Shown here: positions 44,186 through 63,753 of the stretch, in pieces
How positions within the stretch are numbered: position 1 is the stretch's first letter
Layout of the letters: the number at the start of each line of letters is the position of its first letter
Assembly (NCBI GenBank): GCA_011391405.1
Contig: JAABQQ010000271.1
Coordinates: 1 to 64,000 of the forward strand
Direction: 5' to 3'
Length of the DNA stretch: 64,000 bases
Origin: Gammaproteobacteria bacterium
GTDB lineage: Bacteria > Pseudomonadota > Gammaproteobacteria > Steroidobacterales > Steroidobacteraceae
Notes under the pieces: model-generated
The model's database searches: none
Told to the model about the DNA's origin: nothing
The model's input: only the letters and a program-made list of their open reading frames with translations
Program-made: the position numbers and the translations under genes

Positions 44186-45310
<1,125 letters not shown>

Positions 45311-47599: not shown

Positions 47600-47650
47600 G
47601 CGCACTGTTGCACCGGTCCGGTCCTGTGCCGGCGGGTCGCTGGGTTGCTG

Positions 47651-47675
47651 AAAGCCGGCTGTGCCGGCTTTTTCG
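47651..47675 (+). terminator. Rho-independent terminator downstream of infA
   Basis: aaagccggc-tgt-gccggcttttt. Confidence 0.85.
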
Positions 47676-47717
47676 TTTCTGGCTCGAGCGAGGACGATCA
47701 GGAGCCCGGACGTGAAG

Positions 47718-47793
47718 GGACTGGCTTCCGGTTCTGAGTCTGGCGAGCGGAAAGGCAGACACGCTCGCCAGACTCAGAACCGGAAGCCAGTCC
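47718..47793. repeat. Large hairpin H1 with GGAAAGGCAGACAC apical core
   Basis: Perfect 31-bp arms (47718-47748 / 47763-47793), 14-nt loop ggaaaggcagacac. Confidence 0.93.
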
Positions 47794-48071
47794 TGACGGC
47801 CTGCGCCTGAGCGGCTCGTCGGGCCAGAACGAAATGCGGCAATAGCGGGTGTGCTTCAGGCCCGACGATCCGCACGGCGCATGCAGCCGGACGGATGCAG
47901 AGGCACTCAGCGTCGGGTGGAGGGCGCGCTGCGACGGGCCAGCAGGAAGCTGATCTGGGTGCACAGGCTCAGGCTGCCCTGCCCTCGACGACGGTGCTGA
48001 CGTCGAACCCGCGGCACGGTGAACCCGGGCGCTGCCCGATGACCTTCTCCAAGTTGGCGTGCGCCGTGCGA

Positions 48072-48095
48072 CCTTTTCCGCCTGCGCGGAAAAGG
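48072..48095. repeat. Short perfect hairpin
   Basis: ccttttccgc-ctgc-gcggaaaagg. Confidence 0.85.
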
Positions 48096-48116
48096 CGCTC
48101 AGGCGCGTGACGTCCA

Positions 48117-48191
48117 GCGTCTTTTGCGGTCTCCTTTCCGGCGAGCGTGTCTGCCTTTCCGCTCGCCGGATAAGGAGACCGCAAAGGACGC
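48117..48191. repeat. Large hairpin H2, same core in opposite orientation
   Basis: Arms gcgtcttttgcggtctcctttccggcgagc / gctcgccggataaggagaccgcaaaggacgc (1-nt bulge, few mismatches); loop gtgtctgcctttcc. Confidence 0.9.
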
Positions 48192-63505: not shown

Positions 63506-63571
63506 GGTCCGGGATCTGCCCTCGATCTTAGAAAGGCAGGCGTGTTCTCTCAGGGCGTCCGATCCGGGACC
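63506..63571. repeat. Degenerate hairpin H5, related to H1-H4
   Basis: ggtccgggatc-tgccct / agggcgtccgatccgggacc arms (bulged) around ttagaaaggcaggcgtgttc. Confidence 0.6.
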
Positions 63572-63630
63572 TACCCCCGAGCTTGGAAAGGCAGACACGC
63601 GCTCGCGGGTAGGTCCCGGATCGGACGCCC
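63553..63630. repeat. Large hairpin H3 with GGAAAGGCAGACACGC core
   Basis: 30-bp arms with one mismatch (63553-63582 / 63601-63630), 18-nt loop ttggaaaggcagacacgc. Confidence 0.93.
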
Positions 63631-63662
63631 GTGATGCGGCGCATGCAGCGTCGAGAGTGGAT

Positions 63663-63724
63663 GATCCGGAGCCTTTGCCCAAGCGCGTGTCTGCCTTTCC
63701 AAGCTTGGGGGAAGGCTCCGGATC
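63663..63724. repeat. Large hairpin H4, core in opposite orientation
   Basis: 22-bp arms with two mismatches (63663-63684 / 63703-63724), loop gcgtgtctgcctttccaa = reverse complement of the H3 loop. Confidence 0.92.
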
Positions 63725-63753
63725 GTCCGCTCGTAGCACCGCTGCGTGACCGC

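What the first reader, a model, noticed from the sequence alone, without database searches (positions are those of the whole stretch)
47718..48191. Hairpin pair H1/H2 with an invariant loop core between infA and clpA
H1 has perfect 31-bp arms around ggaaaggcagacac. H2, about 320 bp away, carries the same core on the other strand (gtgtctgcctttcc). The first 7 bp of stem next to the core are shared (ggcgagc/gctcgcc); beyond that the two stems are unrelated, yet each is self-complementary. Conserved apex with covarying stem is the reverse of an ordinary dispersed repeat. It suggests either selection on hairpin shape (REP/BIME-like, protein- or transposase-recognised) or a snap-back process that re-templates one arm from the other. 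The pair sits in a convergent gene-end gap with no convincing ORF.
Basis: partly seen in the sequence, partly recalled or inferred. Interest (0 to 1): 0.72.

Follow-up and report, generated by a model that had tools for sequence, protein, structure and literature searches.

The report
Genus-specific two-hairpin element behind genes
The two hairpins are copies of a dispersed DNA element, found only in one genus of uncultured gammaproteobacteria, that sits just behind genes; its loop sequence stays fixed within a group of related species while the two sides of its long stem keep changing together, which makes it a good natural case for asking whether hairpin arms are copied from each other.

Summary
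H1 (perfect 31-bp arms around GGAAAGGCAGACAC) and H2 are two of about 100 copies in this 3.5-Mb draft genome (103 matches; 4 for the reversed control). Each copy ("A") often has a second hairpin ("B", GCGCCTGAGC...GCACGGCGC) about 9 nt further on. A-B modules lie just behind gene 3' ends: 80 of 132 in convergent gaps, 3 in divergent ones. +/- pairs are mostly two convergent genes, each with its own module.

In 50 A copies, 30 of 31 stem pairs change on both sides and 96.8% of cells pair. At orthologous sites in three species the arms change together (105 double Watson-Crick changes, half of transversion type; 68 one-sided), including H1 itself. The loop is nearly fixed in complete hairpins but decays in half-units lacking one arm. 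B occurs in 8 of 9 genomes of the genus and none clearly outside it; the other species carry a different, related loop. No Y1/RAYT transposase was found in the window's genome.

Best reading: a new REP/BIME-like 3'-end element with a recognised loop, its arms kept matched by selection plus probable intra-hairpin template switching. The trans factor and any RNA role are unknown.

The parts
47718..47793 (+). H1, hairpin A of the module behind infA: arms 47718-47748 and 47763-47793, loop core GGAAAGGCAGACAC 47749-47762
   Evidence: orthologous hairpins with other stems in G004 and G005
47803..47880 (+). Hairpin B of the infA-side module (GCGCCTGAGC...GCACGGCGC), long-loop form, 9 nt after A
   Evidence: coordinates
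48061..48106 (-). Hairpin B of the clpA-side module
   Evidence: pattern match; B-model match 48049-48106, 56 bits,
48117..48191 (-). H2, hairpin A of the clpA-side module: core at 48147-48160, imperfect stem
   Evidence: orthologues in G004 and G005
63553..63630 (+). Second A pair in the window, + copy (TT apex type), core 63585-63598
63655..63732 (-). Second A pair in the window, - copy, core 63687-63700
47650..47677 (+). Separate terminator-like hairpin of infA, upstream of H1 (context, not part of the element)

Best explanation
H1 and H2 are copies of a dispersed two-hairpin module (A then B) that sits directly behind gene 3' ends in one genus. Shown here: A has a long, almost fully pairing, sequence-variable stem under a loop that is nearly invariant within a species group; B has a conserved foot with a bulged T and a variable, covarying inner stem; the module points away from the gene it follows; the loop is kept only where both arms exist; the loop is homogeneous within a species group and differs between groups. 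Inferred: the loop, presented on a stem, is read by a trans factor (protein or RNA) specific to the species group; the stem only has to pair; the arms are kept matched in part because replication template switching inside the hairpin copies a change from one arm to the other in one step, with selection removing broken hairpins; copies spread and replace each other by an unidentified route. +/- pairs such as H1/H2 are the 3' modules of two convergent genes.
For: 103 genome matches against 4 control. Covariation in 30 of 31 stem pairs, 0/500 shuffles; B covaries too. Placement behind gene ends: convergent 80, divergent 3; single copies likewise. 105 double Watson-Crick changes, 54 of transversion type, against 68 one-sided changes at orthologous sites; H1 against G004 11 double, 1 single. 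Loop mutated at 2.7% of sites in B-anchored complete hairpins against 9.4% in half-units. Species-group-specific loops with the same B, also at a shared site behind a pilU-like gene. Two inverted loops in the G000 clade. Template switching is documented as creating and maintaining hairpins (PMC8794818) and as inverting spacers (PMC8604942).
Against: In the 20 closest orthologous pairs one-sided changes (26) outnumber double ones (12), so much of the arm divergence may be ordinary or come from replacement by other copies. Six orthologous sites swapped apex type, which points to exchange between copies. No trans factor, mobilising gene or expression evidence was found. The gene caller is rough and the genomes are drafts.
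Confidence: 0.55

Rival explanations
1. A structured RNA element of mRNA 3' ends (stability, processing or sRNA release), with ordinary stepwise compensatory mutations under selection for pairing and no special mutation process.
For: Module follows genes in sense orientation; conserved loop on a covarying stem and a conserved bulge in B are typical of structured RNA; one-sided changes prevail in the closest pairs.
Against: No excess of G-T pairs on the A strand: 60 G-T against 107 A-C among non-Watson-Crick pairs, 14 against 38 among one-sided changes; transversion-type double changes are as common as transition-type ones. Strand-biased mutation could also cause the A-C excess.
Confidence: 0.35
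2. A REP/BIME-type non-autonomous mobile element spread by a Y1 (RAYT) transposase that reads the hairpin.
For: Copy number, inverted pairs, placement and hairpin form resemble REPs (PMC3733652); concerted evolution implies turnover.
Against: No Y1_Tnp in G000 or G004; the one in G005 and those of other genus members are not flanked by A or B. G003 has two Y1_Tnp matches but no A-B. Stems are 31 bp, REP stems 5-13 bp (PMC3733652). G000 is only 78% complete, so absence is not final.
Confidence: 0.2
3. Ectopic gene conversion: hairpins are overwritten by other copies, so matched arms come from a donor copy and not from arm-to-arm copying.
For: Stem subfamilies exist (median best arm identity to a non-orthologous copy 93%), and six orthologous sites changed apex type outright.
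Against: 16 copies have no close donor in the sampled copies (best match under 75%; two of these were too short to score) yet are 95% self-complementary; private outer stems such as G000 L043 and G004 L170 changed on both arms. The sampled copies are not all copies.
Confidence: 0.3
4. H1 and H2 are intrinsic transcription terminators of infA and clpA.
For: Position between convergent genes; strong GC-rich stems.
Against: No T run follows A or B; the terminator scan finds the separate infA terminator at 47650-47677 (and an overlapping and a coding-region match), none at H1 or H2. A terminator would not need an invariant loop.
Confidence: 0.05

Closest known systems
REP / BIME palindromes (GTAG and CGTC families, PMC3733652; RAYT-associated, PMC2817692, PMC8266576)
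   Same: Dispersed intergenic palindromes at about 100 copies per genome, often in inverted pairs, close to gene 3' ends, enriched between convergent genes, patchy between relatives.
   Different: 31-bp stems against 5-13 bp; invariant 14-nt loop under a fast-changing stem; a fixed second hairpin B; no clear GTAG or CGTC tag at the foot of A; no RAYT gene found in the window's genome.
Template-switch-maintained hairpins (PMC8794818; inverted-repeat homogenisation in yeast genes, PMC8604942)
   Same: Paired changes of both arms, including transversions, and occasional loop inversion.
   Different: There the hairpins are single RNA or protein genes; here about 100 dispersed copies share one loop. 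Template switching was not observed directly here.
Double-hairpin and repetitive hairpin elements of mitochondrial DNA (sponge RHE, PMC2800124; double-hairpin elements named in PMC4478555)
   Same: Short mobile hairpin modules in intergenic DNA.
   Different: Organelle genomes; only titles and abstracts were seen and no sequence relation was tested here.

Membership tests
REP (GTAG/CGTC superfamilies) | Dispersed intergenic palindrome in high copy number, near gene 3' ends | tested here: met
REP (GTAG/CGTC superfamilies) | Short stem of 5-13 bp (PMC3733652) | tested here: not met
   A stems average 31 bp
REP (GTAG/CGTC superfamilies) | GTAG or CGTC tetranucleotide at the hairpin foot | tested here: inconclusive
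   No such motif at the foot of A in alignment A1; a partly conserved CGTC lies about 7 nt beyond the foot of B; no dedicated test was made
REP (GTAG/CGTC superfamilies) | RAYT (Y1_Tnp) gene in the genome, flanked by the repeat (GTAG families) | tested here: not met
   G000 is 78% complete
BIME | REPs in alternating orientation within one composite unit | tested here: inconclusive
   Inward-facing A-B ... B-A pairs are common, but spacing varies from about 90 to 430 nt and most fit two convergent genes
Known Rfam RNA family | Match above the family's gathering score | tested here: not met
   only sub-threshold chance hits to long hairpins such as miRNA precursors
Intrinsic terminator | GC-rich stem followed by a T run | tested here: not met
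   and sequence
Template-switch-maintained hairpin | Simultaneous multi-base paired changes on a tree edge | tested here: inconclusive
   Double changes and two inverted loops seen, but only three species and no tree

The most novel reading that the evidence does not exclude
A loop-anchored hairpin element: the only selected sequence of A is the loop, which a factor specific to the species group reads, while the 31-bp arms are a mutational by-product, perpetually re-copied from each other by template switching inside the hairpin, so about 100 copies per genome form a natural library of single-step compensatory changes.
Probability: 0.35. Interest if true: 0.78.

Novelty: new variant of a known kind. 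Interest (0 to 1): 0.6.

Why it matters
Whether compensatory changes in hairpins arise stepwise under selection or in one step by template switching is an open question (PMC8794818). Here one genome has about 100 long hairpins with a common loop, half-unit controls lacking an arm, a second covarying hairpin, and related species with a different loop, so the question can be tested by counting. It also shows a REP-like 3'-end element without an evident RAYT partner.

Tried and rejected
Y1/RAYT as mobiliser: no gene in G000 or G004, and no A/B hairpins around the hits in other genomes. Transposase between widely spaced +/- copies (G000 C11, G004 C145, G005 C45): the open frames look like ordinary genes (for example TtcA-like, AccC-like, sulfotransferase-like, by eye, not searched), none like a transposase. 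Rfam: no accepted match. Viral relatives: 9 IMG/VR contigs carry the 18-mer but without stems, eight of them one conserved AT-rich locus, so not the element. Spread beyond the genus: the B model finds 8 of 9 genus members and, outside, one marginal hit (E 0.005) in a coding-like context among 208 family genomes. The first estimate of loop conservation was biased by exact-core retrieval and was repeated from B-anchored sites. A first attempt to extract B used a faulty pattern and was redone.

Full report
Observation. The sequence at 47718-47793 is a perfect 31-bp hairpin around GGAAAGGCAGACAC; the hairpin at 48117-48191 carries the same core on the other strand on an imperfect stem. About 3e-12 hairpins of H1's quality are expected by chance in 64 kb. 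The gap is between infA (+) and clpA (-).

Copy number and range. An 18-base probe around the core has 103 matches with up to 3 mismatches in the window's own genome (G000, 3.54 Mb in 293 contigs, 78% complete) and 4 for the reversed control. Two apex types exist: GC|GGAAAGGCAGACAC|GC and CTT|GGAAAGGCAGACAC|GCG. Of 217 genomes of the family only G000, G004 and G005, all of one genus, have this core followed by GCKC (40-genome check with 1 mismatch).

Anatomy. On the 3' side of A, at 9 +/- 1 nt in most cases, lies a second hairpin B in 76 of 153 A copies by a fuzzy pattern. B reads GCGCC-T-G-A-GC...GC-A-C-GGCGC: a foot with a bulged T, then a variable inner stem. 12 of 17 B pairs have double changes and the covariation score is 0.363 against 0.140 shuffled. 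In the window B lies at 47803-47880 (+) and 48061-48106 (-). Where two A copies of opposite strand share a gap in G000 (within 700 bp), they always face inward, A-B ... B-A. Tandem half-units also occur: left arm plus core plus GCG, repeated at about 57 nt, with only the last one having a right arm.

Placement. A rough codon-based gene caller trained on six window genes was used. The gene on the left runs into A in 120 of 145 cases at a median distance of 57 bp. Context: convergent 80, codirectional sense 29, codirectional antisense 20, divergent 3. For single copies: 31, 15, 6 and 1; in five of the six antisense single copies the right-hand gene ends within about 20 bp. So A-B modules sit directly behind gene ends, and the H1/H2 pair is best read as one module for infA and one for clpA. 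The infA terminator at 47650-47677 is a separate hairpin with a T tail; A and B have none.

Stem covariation. In 50 GC-type copies 30 of 31 pairs vary on both sides, 96.8% of cells pair (72.3% shuffled, at most 48.3% when slid), and 332 cells have double changes against 79 shuffled. Own-arm complementarity is 95.5%, between copies of one apex class 65.6%.

Orthologous sites. 43 orthologous hairpin pairs between G000, G004 and G005 were found from outer flanks averaging 90.6% identity. In the 37 with the same apex type, 1121 pair columns hold 105 double Watson-Crick changes (54 transversion, 51 transition type), 68 changes on one side against a Watson-Crick pair (A-C 38, G-T 14, other 16) and 10 double non-pairing changes. 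H1 against G004: 18 columns same, 11 double, 1 single, 1 double non-pairing. In 6 further sites the apex type itself differs. The picture is mixed: in the closest pairs one-sided changes (26) outnumber double ones (12), some sites have been replaced outright, and others (for example G000 L043 and G004 L170) keep a private outer stem that has changed on both arms. G-T mismatches are not in excess on the A strand (60 against 107 A-C), so sense-strand wobble tolerance does not explain the stems. Two copies of the G000 clade have the loop inverted relative to B, which template switching predicts (PMC8604942, PMC8794818). I therefore take template switching inside the hairpin as probable but not proven, together with exchange between copies and selection for pairing.

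The loop is what is kept. Starting from B hits, without using the core, 70 upstream hairpins in G000, G004 and G005 have 26 loop mutations in 980 sites (2.7%); 50 of 70 are exact. In 45 half-units lacking a right arm (at most 4 mismatches, which flatters them) 59 of 630 sites differ (9.4%); 17 of 45 are exact (Fisher 5e-4; per site 8e-9, which ignores shared ancestry). The loop is thus conserved when it sits on a stem and decays when it does not.

Genus level. A covariance model of B finds it in 8 of 9 genomes of the genus, not in G003, and apart from one marginal hit not in 208 other genomes of the family. G001, G006, most G007 copies and three G008 copies carry a related loop (GAAGAAGACAT and variants), G002 carries CCGAAAGCCGACAT, and a G007 subset has GCGAAATGAGATTTCGC. 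Behind a pilU-like gene (named by eye) the module is present in G000, G005 and G006, each with the loop of its own species group and a different stem, although the DNA downstream differs. The infA-clpA gap has the module in G000, G004 and G005 but not in G001, G002, G003, G006 or G007. Homogeneity within species groups and difference between them is concerted evolution, so copies turn over.

Mechanism. Shown: dispersal, placement, covariation, loop retention only on stems, species-group-specific loops. Inferred: recognition of the loop by a trans factor; arm copying by template switching; spread by an unknown agent. No Y1 transposase gene was found in G000 or G004, and those of other genus members are not flanked by A or B. 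Rfam has no match above gathering scores.

Verdict. A genuine, genus-specific, REP/BIME-like two-hairpin element with unusually long stems. It is filed as a new variant of a known kind rather than a REP member, because the short-stem and RAYT features were tested and not met and the tag feature is inconclusive.

Noticed in passing
window 44186-44258: A 29-bp, 97% complementary palindrome (GGGAAAATTGGGGACGCTCACCTATTTCC / GGAAACAGGTGAGCGTCCCCAATTTTCCC) between the ftsK-like and trxB-like genes, unrelated to A or B; it looks like a RAYT-type REP (recalled, not tested).
   Followed up: no
L167 around 1804-1879 (contig JAPLSF010000388, near its end): Beyond the A stem the two flanks stay nearly complementary for a further 70 nt or more, a fold-back that may be an assembly artefact at a contig end or a very long snap-back duplication.
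   Followed up: no
G000 C270:6781, C275:1184, C260:34944, C249:9491 (L019, L022, L030, L013) and relatives in G004 and G005: A subfamily with stem GGCGTTCGTTCCGGGTCT... shares about 200-250 nt of further conserved sequence beyond B, so the recently spreading unit may be longer than A-B.
   Followed up: partly
G007 C17:25800-27050 (L174): A tandem array of A-B units at about 250-nt spacing in both orientations, with some A hairpins lying between two B hairpins.
   Followed up: partly
L199 205-271 (G003) and L200 2824-2885 (G008): GGTGCC...GGCACC palindromes lie near the Y1 transposase genes, as expected for RAYT-REP pairs, and are distinct from A and B.
   Followed up: no
many G000 contigs, for example C16, C41, C56, C86, C215, C260: Draft contigs often end within a few hundred bases of an A hairpin, so the element probably breaks assemblies and the copy number is a lower bound.
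   Followed up: no
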